Part shown: positions 22,934-31,120 of the stretch, in pieces
Position numbering within the stretch: the stretch's first letter is position 1
Layout: every line of letters starts with the position of its first letter
Assembly: GCA_025041175.1 (NCBI GenBank)
Contig: JAKCFJ010000003.1
Location: forward strand, 124,001-188,000
Direction of reading: 5' to 3'
DNA: 64,000 bases
DNA from: Halobacteriales archaeon YIM A00010
GTDB taxonomy: Archaea > Halobacteriota > Halobacteria > Halobacteriales > Haloarculaceae
Translations under genes and position numbers: made by a program
The notes under the pieces: generated by a model
The model's input: only the letters and a program-made list of their open reading frames with translations
Database searches by the model: none
What the model was told of the DNA's origin: nothing

Positions 22934-24184
22934 TTACCGAGGGACAACGGTCCCGCGGCTTTCGACGGTCAACAGCCCGCTGTTCAAGCGCACGTCTACA
23001 GGTGCGCCTCCACCGGAGGACGTGTGCAACCGATGGAGATTCTTTGCACACTTCACTGCAATGTTCTTCGCTGCATTGTAGTCGGCGTGAATCTCGTAGC
23101 CGCACTTCAGGCAGCGGAACTCGTCTTGGCCGTTCGTCGTCGGCCGGTTGTCCTCGTGAGTGAACCCGCAGTCGGTGTGTGAACACTGCTGAGACGTGTG
23201 CCGAGGGTTCACCTGCTCGACGCGGATACCGTCCGATTTGGCCTTGTACGTCACAATCTCGACGATCTTCCGGAACGCCCACCGATGCTGCCACGTCGCG
23301 TCTGGCAGGCGCTCGCGGATGTCGGTCAAGTCCTCGAAGGCGATATGCGTACAGTCGTTCTCGCGTGCCTCGGCGAGAATCGTGTTCGCCGTCTCGTGAA
23401 CGAGGATCGTGAACCGACCGTCTTCTTTCCGGCCGACTGACTGCATGTTTTCGTGCGCCCATCGGGTGCCGCATTGTTGGAGTGACGCCCGTCGCTGTTC
23501 GTATTCGTTTTGCCAGTGGGTGAGTTCGCCACCCGAGACGAACGTTCCCGTCGATGTAACGGCGATGTTTTCGACACCGAGGTCGACCCCGAGAACCGTT
23601 CCGTTCTCGGCGGTTCGCTGCTCGGCTGTGCGTTCAGCGTCGGTCTTGTGCCGCCGAAAGCCCATGTGTAAGAAGTAGGTGCCGTCGCGGGCGGTAAGCG
23701 TACTCTCGGTGAGTTCCCACTGCGCGTCGTTCAAGAATTGCCACTGATAGCCGTCTTCGTCCTGCGGAAGGGCGAGTGGACACCGGATACGGCTCTCGAC
23801 AGTGGTCAACGACACAGTGTGGTCGTCGAACAGCGTCATGGTCCGCGTGTCGTAGGTAATGGTCGGACTCGTGTACGTCGGCTTGGATGCTTTTAGTCCC
23901 TTGTTCTTCCGTTCTAAGCACCCGGAAATCGCTTCGGCGGCTTGGTGGGTGGCGAGAATGGCGTGTTGGCTCGACAAGTCGGTTTGCTCGCGGATCGGAT
24001 CGTAGGCGAGCGGCTGAAGCTTGTCTTTGGTACTGACGTTGGGCCACACCATGTCGGTGGCGAGTTGTGTGCCGGTCAGATACTCGCTGATAGTGGCTTC
24101 CAGCAGCGACTGTTGCTCGTCGCTCACTACGAGGCGAGTGATAGCCGTGCGGCGCACATACTCGTCGTCCACTACTATGTTCAA
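22934..24184 (-). CDS. tnpB: TnpB, RNA-guided nuclease of an IS200/IS605-type element
   Basis: A 416-residue TnpB (TTG start at 24184; a GTG at 24172 giving MDDEYVRRTAI is equally likely). The RuvC-like catalytic residues all appear present: Asp in LGVDLGVENIAV, Glu in HIAFEDLTDI, and Asp in IHADYNAAKNIA. The zinc finger shows CSHTDCG and CLKCGYE. TnpB cuts DNA that matches an omega-RNA guide made from its own 3' end. No tnpA transposase gene is beside it, so it depends on another copy or is a stand-alone survivor. Its frame is intact and long, unlike most mobile genes in this window. Confidence 0.92.
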   Translation of the reverse strand: MNIVVDDEYVRRTAITRLVVSDEQQSLLEATISEYLTGTQLATDMVWPNVSTKDKLQPLAYDPIREQTDLSSQHAILATHQAAEAISGCLERKNKGLKASKPTYTSPTITYDTRTMTLFDDHTVSLTTVESRIRCPLALPQDEDGYQWQFLNDAQWELTESTLTARDGTYFLHMGFRRHKTDAERTAEQRTAENGTVLGVDLGVENIAVTSTGTFVSGGELTHWQNEYEQRRASLQQCGTRWAHENMQSVGRKEDGRFTILVHETANTILAEARENDCTHIAFEDLTDIRERLPDATWQHRWAFRKIVEIVTYKAKSDGIRVEQVNPRHTSQQCSHTDCGFTHEDNRPTTNGQDEFRCLKCGYEIHADYNAAKNIAVKCAKNLHRLHTSSGGGAPVDVRLNSGLLTVESRGTVVPR

Positions 24185-25631: not shown

Positions 25632-25830
25632 TTAGTTGATCTGTTCGAGGTCCGTCCGTGTTCGCTCGGTTTCGACGTTGCCTGTGTTGCGCGTGTCGGT
25701 CGGTTCTAATAGCAAAATCTCCGCCTCCGTGTCGGCAATCCGATGATATTCGATCCCTCGCGGTACGATAGCGAACGTTCCCTTCTGGAGTATCACGTCC
25801 AAGCCGCCCCAGCACGGTGTCTGGCATTGT
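25632..25830 (-). pseudogene. Cupin C-terminal piece joined to a regulator start
   Basis: The leftward frame reads DVILQKGTFAIVPRGIEYHR, then IADTEAEILLLEPTDTRNTG, ending in DLEQIN. This is the last two strands of a small cupin. Its upstream edge is TGTTGACAACAATGCCAGA, the same 19 bases that begin the HTH gene at 27223. A deletion has apparently fused the start of a second copy of that regulator, out of frame, to a cupin tail. Confidence 0.6.
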
Positions 25831-26038
25831 TGTCAACAGTCGGTGTTCTTTCCAGATTATATTGCAATTTTAATGCAAAAATAGCATAGAAAATTCATAT
25901 GAGCGTTCGACATCGTCCGACTTGGATTCTCACACACCACTGGAGTTAATGCACACGAATGGTGTCTTTCACCTGATTCGCGTCAATCTCTGGTCGGGGG
26001 CGATAGCCCTATACCTACAGTCCTCATTGCAATATCTA

Positions 26039-26158
26039 TGCAAGTAACTGATGGCAGTGGCGATCTGGAGTGCGATGTCGTCATCATCGGTAGCGGACCG
26101 GTAGAAGCGGCTGTCAATACAGGACTCTCCGGTGAAGTATTTGAGGTGGTGGGGTAAT
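26039..26158 (+). pseudogene. Collapsed thioredoxin-reductase-like flavoprotein (copy A)
   Basis: The frame starts MQVTDGSGDLECDVVIIGSG (the FAD-binding Rossmann start) and ends after about 39 residues as GEVFEVVG. That end resembles SREAFEEGW of copy B at 27444, so both ends of a longer gene are present and the middle is gone. It stops 1 nt before the GTG of the methyltransferase at 26160. Confidence 0.6.
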
Positions 26159-26159
26159 C

Positions 26160-26795
26160 GTGACTGACGATTCCGAAGAGGAGTTCTGGGATGAACGGTA
26201 CCGCTCTCGGGACCAACTCTTTAGTGGCGATCCCAATCCCAGACTTGTTAGCCAGACTAAACAGCTTAAGCCAGGAACAGCACTCGATATCGGGTGTGGT
26301 GAGGGTGCAGATGCCATTTGGCTGGCTGAGCAGGGCTGGGAAGTTACAGCGGTTGATATCTCCACCGTCGCGCTGGAACGTGGCGTATCACGCGCTAGTG
26401 AGATCGGAGCTGACGTGGCAAATCGAATCGATTGGGTTCACGAGGATCTCTGCACGTGGGAAGGGCCAGAACCGAAATCCCACGATCTCGTCTCGTCTCA
26501 GTTTACTCCGTTCCCTGTCGAGTCGCGTCAGTCGATGTTTCGTCGGCTTGCTGACGCCGTCGCACCTGGAGGCACGCTCTTAATCGTCAGTCACCACCAG
26601 TCAGACATCCAGACCACAATTCCGCGCAACTCGAACGAGGAGATGTACTTCACAGCATCTGATGTGGCTGAAGCGCTCGATTCTGCAGACTGGGACATCA
26701 TCATCGAAGGGAAACTCGAACGCTCCGCTACAGACCCTGACGGAAACGAGGTCACCATTCACGATACGGTATTCAATGCCCATCGACGGGAGTGA
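26160..26795 (+). CDS. Class I SAM-dependent methyltransferase
   Basis: A 211-residue methyltransferase (GTG start, MTDDSEEEFWDERYR). Motif I is ALDIGCGEGADAIWLAEQGW, followed by VTAVDISTVALERG, then a motif IV-like VSSQFTPFP and post-motif GGTLLIVSHH. The opening 'EEEFWDERY....F.G.PNP' is typical of the thiopurine/tellurite-type (TehB-like) small-molecule methyltransferases. It directly follows the collapsed flavoprotein, whose leader probably sets its translation. Confidence 0.85.
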   Translation: MTDDSEEEFWDERYRSRDQLFSGDPNPRLVSQTKQLKPGTALDIGCGEGADAIWLAEQGWEVTAVDISTVALERGVSRASEIGADVANRIDWVHEDLCTWEGPEPKSHDLVSSQFTPFPVESRQSMFRRLADAVAPGGTLLIVSHHQSDIQTTIPRNSNEEMYFTASDVAEALDSADWDIIIEGKLERSATDPDGNEVTIHDTVFNAHRRE

Positions 26796-26824
26796 TAATC
26801 TACAAGCACCCTGAAAAGGGTAAG

Positions 26825-27223
26825 CTACGATTCTATCTCCGGTGGTCGGCTCTCCCCATATGTATCTCGGAACTCCTGAATCAGCTGGCCTGTATTGGCG
26901 TACCACTCGTTGAGCATTCGTTGGAGTCCGTCCGCAATCGCGTCAGCGTCTTTGACTCTGTACACGTGGTGATAGCCGCCATGTTGACAACTCTCTTGTT
27001 CTTTCTTCACAACTCCTGCTTCTTGCAGTCGTTTGACCGACCGGTATGCGGTCGTCCGTTCCCGATCGATGAATTTTGCGATATGGTCCACCGTGAGCGG
27101 TTCATCGCTCTCAACTAACAACCTAAACACCCCTCTGTCCAACTCGTTCAGTCCCAGCATACACTCGAGCAGGTCATCACAGTCCTGTTCCGCTCGGATC
27201 TGTTTCAGTACGGCCTCTGGCAT
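26825..27223 (-). CDS. TrmB-like winged-helix regulator
   Basis: A 132-residue regulator from the ATG at 27223 (MPEAVLKQIRAE). The winged helix reads LNELDRGVFRLLVESDEPLT, VDHIAKFIDRERTTAYRSVK and LQEAGVVKKEQES. Its C-terminal helix (LQRMLNEWYANTGQLIQEFR) is probably for dimerisation. It is divergent from the flavoprotein/methyltransferase pair at 27444 and is the likely local repressor. The start of a second copy survives at 25.83 kb. Confidence 0.8.
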   Translation of the reverse strand: MPEAVLKQIRAEQDCDDLLECMLGLNELDRGVFRLLVESDEPLTVDHIAKFIDRERTTAYRSVKRLQEAGVVKKEQESCQHGGYHHVYRVKDADAIADGLQRMLNEWYANTGQLIQEFRDTYGESRPPEIES

Positions 27224-27443
27224 TGTTGTCAACACTTGGTGCTGCTACCAGAAAAAGATTGCACTCTCACCACAAATGTTGTAATAGCGAAACAAGGAAG
27301 ATTGACAAACCAACCTTGGATTTCACCATCCCAAACATCGAGAATATCGACCAAAACGGTACTCTATGAGCGAACTGAATTGTCTCGCCAATTCTCAAGT
27401 TGGAGTCGATAACCTTAAGCCCACTATCCTACTTGTGCTATCT

Positions 27444-27671
27444 ATGCAAATATCGGGTGGCGGTAGCAGACCGGATTACGATGTCCTCATTATCGGCGGC
27501 GGTCCCGCAGGGTTGAGTGGGGCACTCCAATTATGTCGCTCGCTCCGGAGCGTATTGATCTGCGATAACAACGAGCCTCGCAATGGTCCAGCAACCGAAG
27601 CCCACGGGTCAATGGTTGGTGGAACGGTCAACCTGGAACTCTCGCGAGAAGCGTTCGAGGAGGGGTGGTGA
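27444..27671 (+). pseudogene. Collapsed thioredoxin-reductase-like flavoprotein (copy B)
   Basis: A 75-residue frame with the full FAD-binding start (YDVLIIGGGPAGLSGALQL; VLICDNNEPRN), then a jump after ATEAHG to the probable native end VNLELSREAFEEGW. Intact relatives are about 300 residues, so some 230 residues, including the CxxC redox site, are missing. The frame is still open and sits 2 nt before the next ATG with a good ribosome-binding site (gaggaggggtgg) inside it. Confidence 0.65.
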
Positions 27672-27673
27672 TT

Positions 27674-28336
27674 ATGCACGAGGAGCTCGGGGAACTCGCT
27701 AACCACTTCTCGCAGATAGCCCACCACTACGACGACAAGCACGACAGCGAGGCGAAGCCAATATACAATGCGTGCGCCTCGCTCGTCATCGAACACGCCG
27801 GCCCGCGTCCTGACGACGTGGTTCTTGACCTTGGAACAGGCACGGGCCTGATCGCTTTCGCGCTCGCCGATGATGCTGGCCACGTTGTCGGTCGCGACAT
27901 CAGCGAGGGAATGATAGAGCAGGCGCAGACGAAGGCCACTGACAGCGGTATCGAAAACGTAGAGTTTGGGTATGGAGAGTTCCGCGACCCGCAACACGTC
28001 GGCGAGGTGGACGTCATCGTCTCGAATTTCTCCCTACACCACCTACCCGACGAAGGGAAACGTGAAGCTATCGAGGTCATCGCCGATCTCGACCCGCGCC
28101 GGTTCGTCCTCGGTGACGCGATGTTCTTCGGCTCGTCCGATCCCGAAGAACCATTATTCGGCCACGGGGTTGATGCGGCAACCGTCGGCATGCTCGTGGA
28201 CGTACTCACCGACGTTGGATTCGTGGTGATGGCGGTTGAGCGAGTGCACGACCAGGTTGGCGTCCTCGTCGCCGAACAGGCCGATGACGGTGCGGAAATA
28301 GACACCGTCTCCACGGAGCCCACGAGCGAGAAATAG
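27674..28336 (+). CDS. Class I SAM-dependent methyltransferase
   Basis: A 220-residue protein starting MHEELGELANHFSQIAHHYD. Motif I is VVLDLGTGTGLIAFALADDA, followed by VVGRDISEGMIEQAQ, then VDVIVSNFSLHHLPDEGKRE. The pattern is that of UbiE-like small-molecule or metalloid methyltransferases. ATG 27674 lies 2 nt after the flavoprotein stop. It parallels the methyltransferase at 26160 in position, but the two proteins are not close relatives in sequence. Confidence 0.85.
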   Translation: MHEELGELANHFSQIAHHYDDKHDSEAKPIYNACASLVIEHAGPRPDDVVLDLGTGTGLIAFALADDAGHVVGRDISEGMIEQAQTKATDSGIENVEFGYGEFRDPQHVGEVDVIVSNFSLHHLPDEGKREAIEVIADLDPRRFVLGDAMFFGSSDPEEPLFGHGVDAATVGMLVDVLTDVGFVVMAVERVHDQVGVLVAEQADDGAEIDTVSTEPTSEK

Positions 28337-28457: not shown

Positions 28458-29180
28458 CTAGCAGTCAGCTCGTTCCCTCCCGTCAAGTAGGTAGCGTTTC
28501 GCGGGGAACGCTCGGGTCGCGGTTGCCTTGAATGAGGCACCCACCTCGTCGCCGGGAGCAAGATCGAGCGTGGCGATACTCGTCCGGGTCACGAGTGCGG
28601 TCAAGTCGGTATCGGCACCGATATCGAGCACAACGCGCACGATCGTTTCACCCATCTCAACACGTACGACCTTGCTTTGAAACTGATTACGGGCACTGGT
28701 CTTCGATTCTGGAATGGTTCCTGGCGCGTGGAGCGTAACGGCGTCCGACCGAATTGAGAGCCAGACGTCCGGGGGGGTCGCGGGCACGATCGCTCGGACC
28801 GGCCCTGCAGCCGTCTCAACTGTGGCAAGTTCGCCCTCACATTCGATGATCGTTCCCGGGAGGACCGTTTCCTCGGCTTCTGCCACCCCGGTGAACTCGA
28901 CCTGTAAGCGGTCGAATTCCCGAAGGAGATGACGAGCGGTTTCCGTCAGGGTGCTTCCTCCACCCCCGGAGCCACCTCGTTGGCGGTCGACCAACGGTCC
29001 GAACGCCTCTTCAAGTTCGACCACGCGCTGCTGTGAGCGCGAATATGACCGCCCGAGCGCATCGGCGGCTTTGTTGAGCGAGCCGTGTTCGTGGACCGCC
29101 TGGAGAAGTCTCACATCACGATCGGTGAATCCCACCCCCGCCTTGTCTAACCGTGCGTCAAAGTCTGCGTGCAGGTCCAT
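28458..29180 (-). CDS. modE: ModE-type molybdate/tungstate-responsive regulator
   Basis: A 240-residue protein. The N-terminal LysR-like helix-turn-helix reads DRDVRLLQAVHEHGSLNKAA, DALGRSYSRSQQRVVELEEA and VDRQRGGSGGGGSTLTETAR. Two TOBE/Mop-like domains (VLPGTIIECEGELATVET; QFQSKVVRVEMGETIVRVVL) would bind the oxyanion. It is divergent from the transporter genes at 29239 across only 58 bp, so it almost certainly acts on that promoter. Confidence 0.9.
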   Translation of the reverse strand: MDLHADFDARLDKAGVGFTDRDVRLLQAVHEHGSLNKAADALGRSYSRSQQRVVELEEAFGPLVDRQRGGSGGGGSTLTETARHLLREFDRLQVEFTGVAEAEETVLPGTIIECEGELATVETAAGPVRAIVPATPPDVWLSIRSDAVTLHAPGTIPESKTSARNQFQSKVVRVEMGETIVRVVLDIGADTDLTALVTRTSIATLDLAPGDEVGASFKATATRAFPAKRYLLDGRERADC

Positions 29181-29238
29181 ACCGTTCCATGTATGCGAAC
29201 GAGCAAAACATTTATGCTAAATAGGAAATAACACGGTT
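29181..29238. promoter_or_regulatory. Divergent modE / transporter promoter region
   Basis: A 58-bp region with an AT-rich TATA-like element (tttatgctaa, 29211-29220) 19-28 nt before the transporter ATG, which implies a nearly leaderless mRNA. A repressor bound here could control both directions. Confidence 0.5.
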
Positions 29239-30303
29239 ATGTCTATGAAAGAACAACGATGGCGTGTAAATGGCCATTCACGCCGAACGTTCCTACGAGT
29301 GGCTGGCGGAGCAGGTCTTGCTAGTGTAGCGGGGTGCGTAGGTGACAGTGGTTCCGGCAGCAACCGCAGCGAGAGTGGCGGTGGGGAATCCACGACAATC
29401 GCGATTCTCGCGGCTGGAAGCCTCCAGAACGCGCTGTCGAACGGTCTCAAATCTACTGTGGATATACCGGTCCAGATCGAAGCTCACGGCTCTGCAACCG
29501 TCGCTCGCCTGATCTCTGAGGGCAAGAGCGACCCCGACATCGTCTCGGTCGCGGACGTAGCGCTATTCGACCAACCGCTCTCCCCGCCGTGGCACTCTGT
29601 GTTTACAAGCAACGCCGTCGTCATCGCATACAATTCCGACACGGACGGAGGACAGCGCATCGCCGAAGCGGGCAAGGAAAATTGGTACAAACCGATGGCT
29701 AGCGGCGATGTCAAGATCGGTCGAACCGATCCGGACCAGGACCCGCTTGGCTACCGCGCGTTGTTCACTCTCGAACTTGCCTCGCGATACTACGACGACG
29801 CGTCGAATCTCAAGCAGAAGATCCTGCAGCAAAACCAAATCTACCCGGAGACCGCGCTCATCAGTCAGTTCGAGACTGGCTCGATCGACGCCGCAATCAC
29901 CTACCGAAACATGGCCGTCGAACGCGACTACAACTACATCGACCTGCCCGACCAGATCGATTTGAGTAATCCACAATACGCAGACTGGTACTCGACGGTT
30001 TCGTACGCACTGCCGAGCGACCAGAAAATCCAGGGAGGTCTCATCAGCTATGGCTCGACCATCCGCCACATGAGCGACGCTGCCCTGACCGTGTTCGCCG
30101 CCCTCACGACCGGCAACTACCTCAAAGACCACGGCTTTCTCCTGCGCGAGCAATTCCCGGCCTACGAAGGGAACGTTCCACAACAAGTCAGACAGGCAAC
30201 CAATCAAACCGATGGAGATCAATCCGGTGGAACGCAATCCATGCTCGGCAGTCCCACCGTGGAGGTATCGCCAGCGGCGTCTGACATCACGGTTCTGACC
30301 TGA
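29239..30303 (+). CDS. Molybdate/tungstate-binding lipoprotein (ABC transporter)
   Basis: A 354-residue substrate-binding protein. A Tat signal with lipobox (HSRRTFLRVAGGAG; SVAGC) puts it on the outer membrane face. The mature domain reads IAILAAGSLQNALSNGL, AHGSATVARLISEGKSDPDI and DPDQDPLGYRALFTLELA, the pattern of tungstate/molybdate-binding WtpA/ModA proteins. It delivers the oxyanion to the permease encoded next. The first gene of a tight operon with the permease (1-nt gap) and ATPase. Confidence 0.88.
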   Translation: MSMKEQRWRVNGHSRRTFLRVAGGAGLASVAGCVGDSGSGSNRSESGGGESTTIAILAAGSLQNALSNGLKSTVDIPVQIEAHGSATVARLISEGKSDPDIVSVADVALFDQPLSPPWHSVFTSNAVVIAYNSDTDGGQRIAEAGKENWYKPMASGDVKIGRTDPDQDPLGYRALFTLELASRYYDDASNLKQKILQQNQIYPETALISQFETGSIDAAITYRNMAVERDYNYIDLPDQIDLSNPQYADWYSTVSYALPSDQKIQGGLISYGSTIRHMSDAALTVFAALTTGNYLKDHGFLLREQFPAYEGNVPQQVRQATNQTDGDQSGGTQSMLGSPTVEVSPAASDITVLT

Positions 30304-30304
30304 T

Positions 30305-31120
30305 ATGGCGACTCGATCGAACTCGACTCGATCACGGACGATACCGCTGGCCCTCGATTGGCTCACCGTCGCACTCGGACTTGGTGGCGTATTGTGTCTG
30401 TATTATCTCGCGCCGCTGGTGTCGCTGTTCCTTTCGGTGCCGCCGGGAGAGCTCCTTGCCCGGATGAACAACCCAGCCGTCGTGGATGCAGCGACCACTT
30501 CGGTGCTGTCAGCGTCGATCAGCACAGTCGTCGCCACAGTGTTCGGCTTGCCACTCGCGTACTGGCTTGCACGCACCGACGGCCGCTGGACGAACGCCGT
30601 GCTCGCGGTCGTGGTCCTGCCGCTCGTACTTCCGCCGACAGTGGGCGGAATCGTGCTGCTCACGGTATTCGGTCCTGGGGCACCGATTGGGGAAGCCGCA
30701 GTCGCCGCCGGATTCCCCCTCACCCGATCGCTCGCTGGAGTGGTACTCGCCCAGACGTTCGTCGCATCACCGTTCGTGGTTGTGACGGCGAAAGCCGCCT
30801 TCGAGGGCGTCGACCGAACGCTCGAACACGCCTCTCGATCGCTCGGGAAAGGACGGTGGACGACCGCTCGCAACGTCACGCTCCCGCTCGCTATGCCGGG
30901 AATTCTCGCGGGCGTGACGCTTACGTTCACGCGCGCAATGGGCGAATTCGGCGCGACCATGATAATGGCGTACTATCCCCGGACGATGCCGGTCCAGATT
31001 TGGGTGGCGTTCATCGAGCTCGGACTGGACAATGCCTATCCCGTAGCGATACTCTTATTACTCATCTCGGTCGCGGCACTCGCAACCCTCACCACCATTG
31101 TGTCGAATCCATGGGAATGA
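30305..31120 (+). CDS. Molybdate/tungstate ABC transporter permease
   Basis: A 271-residue inner-membrane subunit with six hydrophobic helices. The EAA coupling loop reads EGVDRTLEHASRSLGKGRWT. The region RAMGEFGATMIMAYYPRTMP near the C-terminus is the hallmark of molybdate/tungstate/sulfate permeases. It pairs with the ATPase that overlaps its stop codon. Confidence 0.92.
   Translation: MATRSNSTRSRTIPLALDWLTVALGLGGVLCLYYLAPLVSLFLSVPPGELLARMNNPAVVDAATTSVLSASISTVVATVFGLPLAYWLARTDGRWTNAVLAVVVLPLVLPPTVGGIVLLTVFGPGAPIGEAAVAAGFPLTRSLAGVVLAQTFVASPFVVVTAKAAFEGVDRTLEHASRSLGKGRWTTARNVTLPLAMPGILAGVTLTFTRAMGEFGATMIMAYYPRTMPVQIWVAFIELGLDNAYPVAILLLLISVAALATLTTIVSNPWE

What the first reader, a model, noticed from the sequence alone, without database searches (positions are those of the whole stretch)
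25632..28336. Twice-occurring regulator / flavoprotein / methyltransferase cassette with both flavoproteins collapsed
At 25.8-26.8 and 27.2-28.3 kb the same divergent layout occurs: a regulator start (shared 19-mer TGTTGACAACAATGCCAGA), a thioredoxin-reductase-like start (MQ.....), then a methyltransferase 1-2 nt after the flavoprotein stop. In both copies the flavoprotein keeps its FAD-binding start and its last residues but has lost the middle by different deletions, leaving 39- and 75-codon frames. Open frames and tight coupling were kept twice, so the short frames may be needed to translate the methyltransferases.
Basis: seen in the sequence. Interest (0 to 1): 0.55.

Follow-up and report, generated by a model that had tools for sequence, protein, structure and literature searches.

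The report
Gutted enzyme genes kept as leaders
In a salt-loving archaeon and its relatives, the first enzyme gene of a small operon has repeatedly lost its middle while both ends and an open reading frame survived, most likely because ribosomes must still travel through the stub to reach the methyltransferase gene behind it.

Summary
In this Halocatena-group haloarchaeon two neighbouring cassettes begin with a short frame (39 codons, 26038-26157; 75 codons, 27444-27671) that is a remnant of a ~315-aa TrxB-like (HlmI/DepH/GliT-type) flavoprotein and ends 2 nt before a SAM methyltransferase. Intact regulator/flavoprotein/methyltransferase operons exist in other haloarchaea. Stub 2 lacks exactly 720 nt. 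Of 28 distinct loci of its methyltransferase clade, 18 have an intact flavoprotein, 4 an open stub (all Halocatena group, three different deletions), 1 a frameshift and 5 little or nothing. Haladaptatus halobius has the same tandem block: second flavoprotein intact, first already a stub.

Where two genomes share a stub, its peptide drifts (dN/dS about 0.8-1.0; methyltransferase and regulator 0.09-0.23) but stays open up to the methyltransferase start. A TTGCA-N7-TGCAA dyad overlapping the start explains the kept 5' end. Published work on Haloferax (overlapping genes need upstream translation) would explain the open frame and kept 3' end. So the stubs are probably ribosome-delivery leaders. There are no expression data, stop-avoidance alone is weak, and 1-nt indels occur near the ends of two stubs.

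The parts
25820..25838 (-). start of the lost cassette-1 regulator (ATG at 25827 minus, MPDTV...); only about 10 codons remain
   Evidence: in Haladaptatus halobius the same gene is a frameshifted pseudogene
25862..25878 (.). operator-like dyad TTGCA-N7-TGCAA, regulator side of cassette 1
   Evidence: exact match; position conserved in relatives
26010..26015 (+). TATA-like box 23-28 nt upstream of the first stub's start (leaderless start inferred)
   Evidence: read from sequence; similar box at the same position in relatives (by eye)
26027..26043 (.). operator-like dyad overlapping the ATGCAA start of stub 1
   Evidence: exact match
26038..26157 (+). stub 1: 39-codon in-frame remnant of the flavoprotein (about 21 N-terminal and 17-18 C-terminal codons)
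   Evidence: orthologous 42-codon stub in Haladaptatus halobius
26160..26795 (+). methyltransferase 1 (TehB/TPMT-like class I SAM methyltransferase), GTG start 2 nt after the stub stop
   Evidence: 90% identical protein behind a stub in Haladaptatus halobius; homologue next to an intact flavoprotein in Deinococcus aetherius
26825..27223 (-). cassette-2 regulator, TrmB-type winged helix, 132 aa, intact; inferred to control both cassettes
27259..27275 (.). operator-like dyad, regulator side of cassette 2 (8 of 10 positions)
27433..27449 (.). operator-like dyad overlapping the start of stub 2 (8 of 10 positions)
27444..27671 (+). stub 2: 75-codon in-frame remnant of the flavoprotein (55 N-terminal and 20 C-terminal codons)
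27600..27609 (+). deletion joint of stub 2, GCCCACGGGT; in Haladaptatus halobius similar 10-mers (8 of 10 alike) flank the missing 720 nt
27674..28336 (+). methyltransferase 2 (class I SAM methyltransferase), ATG 2 nt after the stub stop; SD-like GGAGGGGTGGTGAT lies at the stub's 3' end

Best explanation
SHOWN: they derive from the ~315-aa flavoprotein; the 5' end (TATA-like box, operator-like dyad, ATGCAA start) and the 3' end (stop/start within 2 nt, G-rich SD-like stretch) are kept while the middle is lost; the same happened by different deletions in related genomes; the stub peptide then drifts almost freely while regulator and methyltransferase stay constrained. INFERRED: transcription starts at or near the stub's ATG; the dyad binds the TrmB-type regulator, and the cassette-2 regulator now also governs cassette 1; ribosomes terminate at the stub's stop and reinitiate at the overlapping or adjacent methyltransferase start, because haloarchaea do not use Shine-Dalgarno de novo initiation there. 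Deletions or indels that close the frame far from the methyltransferase would silence it and be lost. The cellular role (oxidising or methylating a dithiol or similar small molecule) is a guess from the family.
For: Intact operons with the same regulator, overlap and order (methyltransferase start at -1 nt in 9, +2 in 6, +5 in 1 and +11 in 1 of 17). Stub 2 aligns to Haladaptatus halobius positions 1-166 (86%) and 877-948 (90%), so exactly 720 nt are missing, flanked by GCCCATGGGT and GCCGACGGGT. Open stubs also in G368/H. salina (119 codons), G183/Actinarchaeum (58) and G400/YIM A00013 (57). Haladaptatus halobius has the same tandem block with stub 1 (42 codons, overlapping the methyltransferase start by 8 nt) and an intact second flavoprotein. 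dN/dS: stub G183/G400 0.98 against methyltransferase 0.23 and regulator 0.09 (ratios by hand from dN and dS); stub 1 window/halobius 0.81 (0.35-2.22) against methyltransferase 1 0.17 and regulator 0.14. TTGCA stands exactly 7 nt before the TGCAA of the ATGCAA start in 21 of 21 other loci. Internal control: the cassette-1 regulator of Hd. halobius has frameshifts with stops while its stub stayed open. Literature: 9 of 9 gene pairs in H. volcanii strictly coupled and no de novo SD initiation there (PMC6728339, passages); coupling needs overlap or very short distance, and the last 15 nt of the upstream gene suffice in E. coli (PMC10666635, abstract and section 7).
Against: No expression data. Avoidance of stop codons alone is weak (simulated P of staying open 0.145-0.386). 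The dN/dS interval of stub 1 (0.35-2.22) allows some peptide constraint, and stub 2 is too recent to judge (0.27, 0.12-0.63). The exact frame is not always kept after collapse: H. salina has a 1-nt insertion about 17 codons before the end of its stub and Hd. halobius a 1-nt deletion near the end; both still end within 5 nt of, or overlap, the methyltransferase start. G333 has a full-length flavoprotein with a frameshift before an intact methyltransferase; the shifted frame stops about 315 nt upstream (could be a draft error). In Hd. halobius the stub start is GTG, and an ATG 2 nt earlier is in frame with methyltransferase 1, so a fusion start is possible there. H. salina's stub has no SD-like match. 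In G162=L083 and L084 the methyltransferase survives with no flavoprotein remnant detected.
Confidence: 0.66

Rival explanations
1. The stubs are plain pseudogenes in decay. Their open frames are chance (short length, few mutations), and the methyltransferases are translated on their own.
For: Stop avoidance alone is not significant; stub 2 is recent; two of three indels seen after collapse are 1 nt long; one frameshifted flavoprotein precedes an intact methyltransferase (G333); some methyltransferases of the clade live without any remnant.
Against: Four different deletion joints are all in frame (chance about 1/81, hand calculation; about 0.045 if G333 is counted as an out-of-frame fifth). 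After collapse, two separately compared stub pairs stayed open and kept the overlap while the peptide drifted at dN/dS about 0.8-1. The equally useless cassette-1 regulator of Hd. halobius was broken by frameshifts. In Haloferax, the tested downstream genes of such pairs do not initiate de novo.
Confidence: 0.23
2. The stubs encode small functional proteins, for example an FAD- or ligand-binding micro-protein or a sensor peptide.
For: Stub 2 keeps the GGGPAG dinucleotide-binding loop and Pfam FAD_binding_2 above its cut-off (27.3 against 20.4 bits).
Against: The peptides differ in length and sequence between genomes (39-119 aa). Stubs of G183 and G368 have lost the glycine loop. dN/dS is near 1 where measurable. 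The conserved first residues MQ are explained by the DNA dyad.
Confidence: 0.06
3. Only the 5' end is under selection (promoter plus overlapping operator). The 3' end is kept merely because deletions reaching the methyltransferase kill it, and translation coupling plays no part.
For: The dyad reaches into codon 2, so some coding sequence must stay for regulation alone.
Against: This does not predict an open frame across the joint or a kept stop/start overlap through 57 codons of nearly neutral drift, nor the 8-nt re-overlap after a 1-nt indel in Hd. halobius.
Confidence: 0.15

Closest known systems
Termination-reinitiation coupling of overlapping gene pairs in Haloferax volcanii (Huber et al. 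2019, PMC6728339, passages; 2023, PMC10666635, abstract and section 7)
   Same: Stop/start overlap or very short gap, SD-like stretch inside the upstream gene, haloarchaeal host; a short 3' end of the upstream gene is enough (shown in E. coli).
   Different: There the upstream gene is a native protein gene or a reporter construct. Here a natural enzyme gene was reduced to its two ends, repeatedly.
Short upstream ORFs that deliver ribosomes to the next gene (review PMC12548453, three passages read)
   Different: Origin is visible here: collapse of the operon's own first gene, with intact relatives. The passages read name mycobacterial interspersed elements (an insertion) as a natural case, not gene collapse.
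HlmI/DepH/GliT-type flavin dithiol oxidases with thiol S-methyltransferases (GliT/GtmA)
   Same: The intact flavoprotein's best solved relatives include 4ntd (named thioredoxin reductase; HlmI is my recollection), DepH and GliT, and it has CPYC. GliT and the methyltransferase GtmA both act on gliotoxin (abstract start of PMC5356443 in the listing).
   Different: Substrate unknown. The two methyltransferases here are only generic class I SAM enzymes by profile, and the oxidase is lost in the window.
Rrf2 regulator / flavoprotein / class I methyltransferase operon of Deinococcus aetherius (L153)
   Same: Same order of a related flavoprotein and a methyltransferase 1 homologue (37% identical).
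   Different: Different regulator family; bacterial; flavoprotein intact.

Membership tests
TrxB-like FAD dithiol oxidase (HlmI/DepH/GliT type): the intact relatives | full-length homology to solved members | tested here: met
   4ntd E 3.8e-53, DepH 6.5e-44, GliT 1.4e-34 for the intact Natrialba asiatica protein
TrxB-like FAD dithiol oxidase (HlmI/DepH/GliT type): the intact relatives | redox CxxC motif | tested here: met
   CPYC at residues 137-139 in 17 of 17 intact proteins
TrxB-like FAD dithiol oxidase (HlmI/DepH/GliT type): the intact relatives | dithiol oxidase activity | not testable with these tools
   needs an enzyme assay
TrxB-like FAD dithiol oxidase: the window stubs | CxxC and the NAD(P)-binding middle | tested here: not met
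   both stubs lack the middle of the protein; they are remnants, not members
Termination-reinitiation coupled gene pair | stop and start overlap or lie within a few nt | tested here: met
   2 nt in both window cassettes, 1-nt overlap in G183/G400, 8-nt overlap in Hd. halobius, 5 nt in H. salina
Termination-reinitiation coupled gene pair | SD-like motif in the upstream gene's 3' end (often helpful, not essential, in H. volcanii) | tested here: inconclusive
   anti-SD pairing better than 95% of shuffles in 12 of 17 intact loci but in 2 of 6 stub loci
Termination-reinitiation coupled gene pair | downstream translation lost when the upstream gene carries a premature stop | not testable with these tools
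   needs a reporter experiment
Class I SAM methyltransferase (both downstream genes) | Methyltransf_25 domain above its curated cut-off | tested here: met
   57.8 and 64.6 bits against 27
TrmB/Lrs14/Sta1-type regulator (cassette 2) | family profile above curated cut-off | tested here: inconclusive
   TrmB Pfam 49.4 bits against 25.6, met; Sta1 65.5 against 80 and Lrs14 44.9 against 90, not met

The most novel reading that the evidence does not exclude
In archaea with leaderless mRNAs and no Shine-Dalgarno start at 5' UTRs, the first gene of an overlapping operon cannot simply be lost. It is recurrently hollowed out in frame into a peptide-indifferent leader that carries the operator at one end and the reinitiation site at the other. 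Leader ORFs (uORFs) would thus be born by enzyme-gene collapse, and this operon would be a natural series with intact relatives, several independent collapses and near-neutral drift afterwards.
Probability: 0.48. Interest if true: 0.65.

Novelty: new variant of a known kind. Interest (0 to 1): 0.52.

Why it matters
Translational coupling in haloarchaea has been shown with constructs. Here nature seems to have run the minimal-upstream-gene experiment several times in one operon, leaving only what coupling and regulation need. It gives a concrete origin for leader ORFs and a set of sister loci (intact, fresh stub, old stub) to test it. It also warns annotators that 'hypothetical' stubs before conserved genes may be obligatory translation leaders. 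Of 7 paper searches, five bore on coupling or leaders; in their listings, and in the abstract, passages or one section of the five papers opened, I saw no description of this operon or of leader ORFs arising by collapse of the operon's own first gene. Most subscription papers are not in that library.

Tried and rejected
Stop-avoidance simulation as proof of frame selection: too weak alone. A search with the dyad over 7 genomes of the genus: the exact motif is not enriched genome-wide against the reversed control (9 against 13 in the window genome), so the operator claim rests on conserved position, not on frequency. In one search the leader-side dyad was anchored on ATGCAA, so only its left half (TTGCA) is independent evidence there. 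Chance origin of the repeat, an unrelated small ORF and an assembly artefact were rejected because several separately sequenced genomes carry stubs. Methyltransferase 1 searches: in 292 genomes of the class 7 other genomes had only 36-38% hits, with no such flavoprotein next to them (by eye); in 7 genomes of the genus only the window genome has a close copy; in plasmids the nearest full-length hits are Embleya (45%) and other actinobacteria, where Streptomyces clavuligerus has no annotated flavoprotein beside it and the Embleya record has no annotation. An intact archaeal flavoprotein/methyltransferase 1 operon was not found in these searches; the tandem block in Haladaptatus halobius appeared only when methyltransferase 1 was compared with loci already fetched. 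Two bacterial loci with related flavoproteins but no methyltransferase gave nothing. Pfam gave no hit for the fragment behind the cassette-1 regulator start. No structure prediction was run.

Intact 18: G346=L072, G057=L035, G186=L075, G277=L074, G314, G347=L076, G271, G242, G331=L077, G316, G396, G116=L079, G253=L080, G161, L073, L078, L081 and Natrinema sp. SYSU A 869 (the last from tblastn rows only). Open stub 4: G000, G183=L082, G368=L031, G400=L085. Frameshift 1: G333. 3' tail only 1: G022. None or degenerate 4: G162=L083, L084, L106 (partial methyltransferase), Haloterrigena turkmenica pHTUR03. More distant paralogues (about 57-67% identical in the rows listed) were left out.

I therefore lowered the main confidence from 0.70 to 0.66, raised the pseudogene rival from 0.20 to 0.23 and lowered the novel case from 0.50 to 0.48.
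Full report
WHERE IT IS. The window is G000:C3:124001-188000, on a 0.93-Mb contig of a 5,969,888-base genome.

THE OBSERVATION. Searches confirm two divergent cassettes. Stub 1 is 39 codons (26038-26157) and stub 2 is 75 codons (27444-27671). Each is followed after 2 nt by a class I SAM methyltransferase (26160-26795; 27674-28336). Copy 2 has an intact TrmB-type regulator (26825-27223, minus strand). Copy 1 keeps only the first codons of its regulator.

INTACT RELATIVES. A search with stub 2 in 292 genomes of the class found 14 further places, in 12 genomes, in open frames of 321-433 aa. Eight of the fourteen sit in the canonical order: regulator, divergent flavoprotein of ~315 aa, methyltransferase with overlapping or nearly adjacent stop/start. 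Five (L009, L016, L017, L021, L022) show no such methyltransferase in the stretch held, and L020 is a more distant flavoprotein with another arrangement. The intact protein's best solved relatives include 4ntd, DepH and GliT, and CPYC is present in 17 of 17. So the frames are flavoprotein remnants.

THE DELETIONS. Stub 2 matches the Haladaptatus halobius gene at positions 1-166 (86%) and 877-948 (90%). The two parts share 10 nt of the stub, so exactly 720 nt (240 codons) are missing, between GCCCATGGGT and GCCGACGGGT (8 of 10 alike). This is an ordinary short-repeat deletion. Stub 1 joins about 21 N-terminal codons to 17-18 C-terminal ones.

RECURRENCE. A search with methyltransferase 2 in 392 genomes of the order found 21 members of its own clade (at least 70% identical, the window's included). 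Altogether 336 of 392 genomes have a match at E <= 1e-30; the further rows listed are about 57-67% identical and were not studied. One scan of named genomes (best 80 of 207 kept) and the plasmid collection added more. Of 28 distinct loci, 18 have an intact flavoprotein, 4 an open stub, 1 a frameshifted full-length gene, 1 only the 3' tail, and 4 none or a degenerate locus (list in Tried and rejected). The four stubs are all in the Halocatena group: window stub 2 (75 codons), H. salina (119), Actinarchaeum (58) and YIM A00013 (57). The last two share one deletion. Of six genomes of that genus, five carry this clade, and only H. marina (G277) is intact. Stub 1 belongs to a different methyltransferase. 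Haladaptatus halobius has the same tandem block (85.5% DNA identity over 1.6 kb), with the second flavoprotein intact and the first already a 42-codon stub. Halegenticoccus tardaugens keeps part of methyltransferase 1 next to an intact second cassette, and a Hd. salinisoli plasmid keeps a remnant of methyltransferase 1 beside a remnant of the regulator. Stub 1 is therefore probably older than stub 2, and at least four different deletions are seen.

WHAT SELECTION KEPT. Actinarchaeum against YIM A00013: stub dN 0.63, dS 0.64, ratio 0.98; methyltransferase 0.23; regulator 0.09 (ratios by hand). The stub stays open over 57 codons, with a single 3-nt indel and the same TAATG overlap. Window against Hd. 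halobius: stub 1 0.81 (bootstrap 0.35-2.22), methyltransferase 1 0.17, regulator 0.14, methyltransferase 2 0.16; retained codons of stub 2 0.27 (0.12-0.63), consistent with a recent collapse. H. salina's stub has 55% amino-acid identity to H. marina over codons where two intact genes share 92%. Two 1-nt indels occurred after collapse. One, near the end of the Hd. halobius stub, moved its stop, which now overlaps the methyltransferase start by 8 nt. The other, an insertion about 17 codons before the end of the H. salina stub, leaves it open to 5 nt before the start. So what is kept is an open frame reaching the methyltransferase, not one exact frame; coupling needs only the former. The Hd. halobius cassette-1 regulator, by contrast, is closed by frameshifts. 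Stop avoidance alone is weak (P 0.145-0.386). Four of four deletion joints in frame has a chance of about 1/81 (hand calculation; about 0.045 if G333 is counted as a fifth event).

WHY BOTH ENDS STAY. At the 5' end, TTGCA stands exactly 7 nt before the TGCAA of the ATGCAA start in 21 of 21 other loci (the right half is given by the anchoring), and a second dyad lies at the regulator: 10/10 in 6, 9/10 in 12 and 7/10 in 3 of 21. Cassette 1 has two perfect dyads although its regulator is gone; cassette 2 scores 8/10 twice. A TATA-like box 23-28 nt before the start suggests leaderless mRNA. The conserved 'MQ' is thus explained by DNA. At the 3' end lie a G-rich SD-like stretch and the stop/start overlap. 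Pairing with the anti-SD beats 95% of shuffles in 12 of 17 intact loci but in only 2 of 6 stub loci, with no match in H. salina. In H. volcanii, 9 of 9 tested pairs were strictly coupled (a premature stop upstream abolished downstream translation), SD motifs did not start translation de novo, and SD was often helpful but not essential for reinitiation (PMC6728339, passages). Coupling nearly vanishes by about 20 nt, and 15 nt of the upstream gene suffice in E. coli (PMC10666635, abstract and section 7). An open stub is just what such a system would leave.

AGAINST. No expression evidence. G333 shows a frameshift before an intact methyltransferase. In Hd. halobius an ATG 2 nt before the GTG stub start is in frame with methyltransferase 1, so a fused start is possible. 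Two of three indels after collapse are 1 nt long, though close to the end. Some clade members have no remnant. Species are related, so loci are not fully independent.

FUNCTION. The ancestral cassette probably handled a reactive thiol or dithiol compound, an oxidase plus a methyltransferase, by analogy with GliT/GtmA (abstract start in a listing only) and with a Deinococcus operon pairing a related flavoprotein with a methyltransferase 1 homologue. This is a guess. Loss of the oxidase and retention of the methyltransferase in the Halocatena group is the biological change; its reason is unknown.

VERDICT. Observation confirmed; interpretation favoured but not proven. It is a new variant of a known kind: a translational-coupling leader ORF with a visible origin by gene collapse.

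Noticed in passing
L072:1653-1776 (Haladaptatus halobius): An ATG 2 nt before the GTG stub start is in frame with methyltransferase 1 and open through to it, so a ~41-residue N-terminal fusion is possible there.
   Followed up: partly
window 25820-25838 and 27216-27234: The TGTCAACA part of the 19-mer is shared by both window cassettes but absent from both Hd. halobius cassettes; it may be recent local homogenisation between the copies.
   Followed up: no
window 25632-25802 (minus): A 56-codon fragment of unknown origin joined behind the lost cassette-1 regulator start; cupin-like by eye (recalled), no Pfam hit.
   Followed up: partly
window 22934-24184 (minus): TnpB/OrfB-type transposon protein (Cas12f1-like TNB domain, OrfB_IS605) upstream of the block.
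   Followed up: no
window 28458-31120: TOBE/ModE-like regulator divergent from a solute-binding protein and an ABC permease (Pfam), probably molybdate or tungstate uptake, directly beside cassette 2.
   Followed up: no
L047 (G022): Methyltransferase of the clade behind an unrelated open frame (VOC-like by eye), with only the last 26 codons of the flavoprotein, including the overlap, retained: a different route to a short upstream tail.
   Followed up: partly
L083 and L084: Halorussus litoreus and Halohasta litorea carry the flavoprotein-free methyltransferase with an identical junction; recent transfer or cross-contamination.
   Followed up: no
G403 and G277: Two genomes of the genus share a contig of identical length (3,915,224) and hits at identical coordinates; G403 (5.3 Mb, 9% contamination) probably contains the same strain.
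   Followed up: no
336 of 392 genomes of the order: Matches to methyltransferase 2 at E <= 1e-30 occur in most genomes of the order, in the rows listed mostly as a 57-67% identical paralogue; what it does is not known to me.
   Followed up: no
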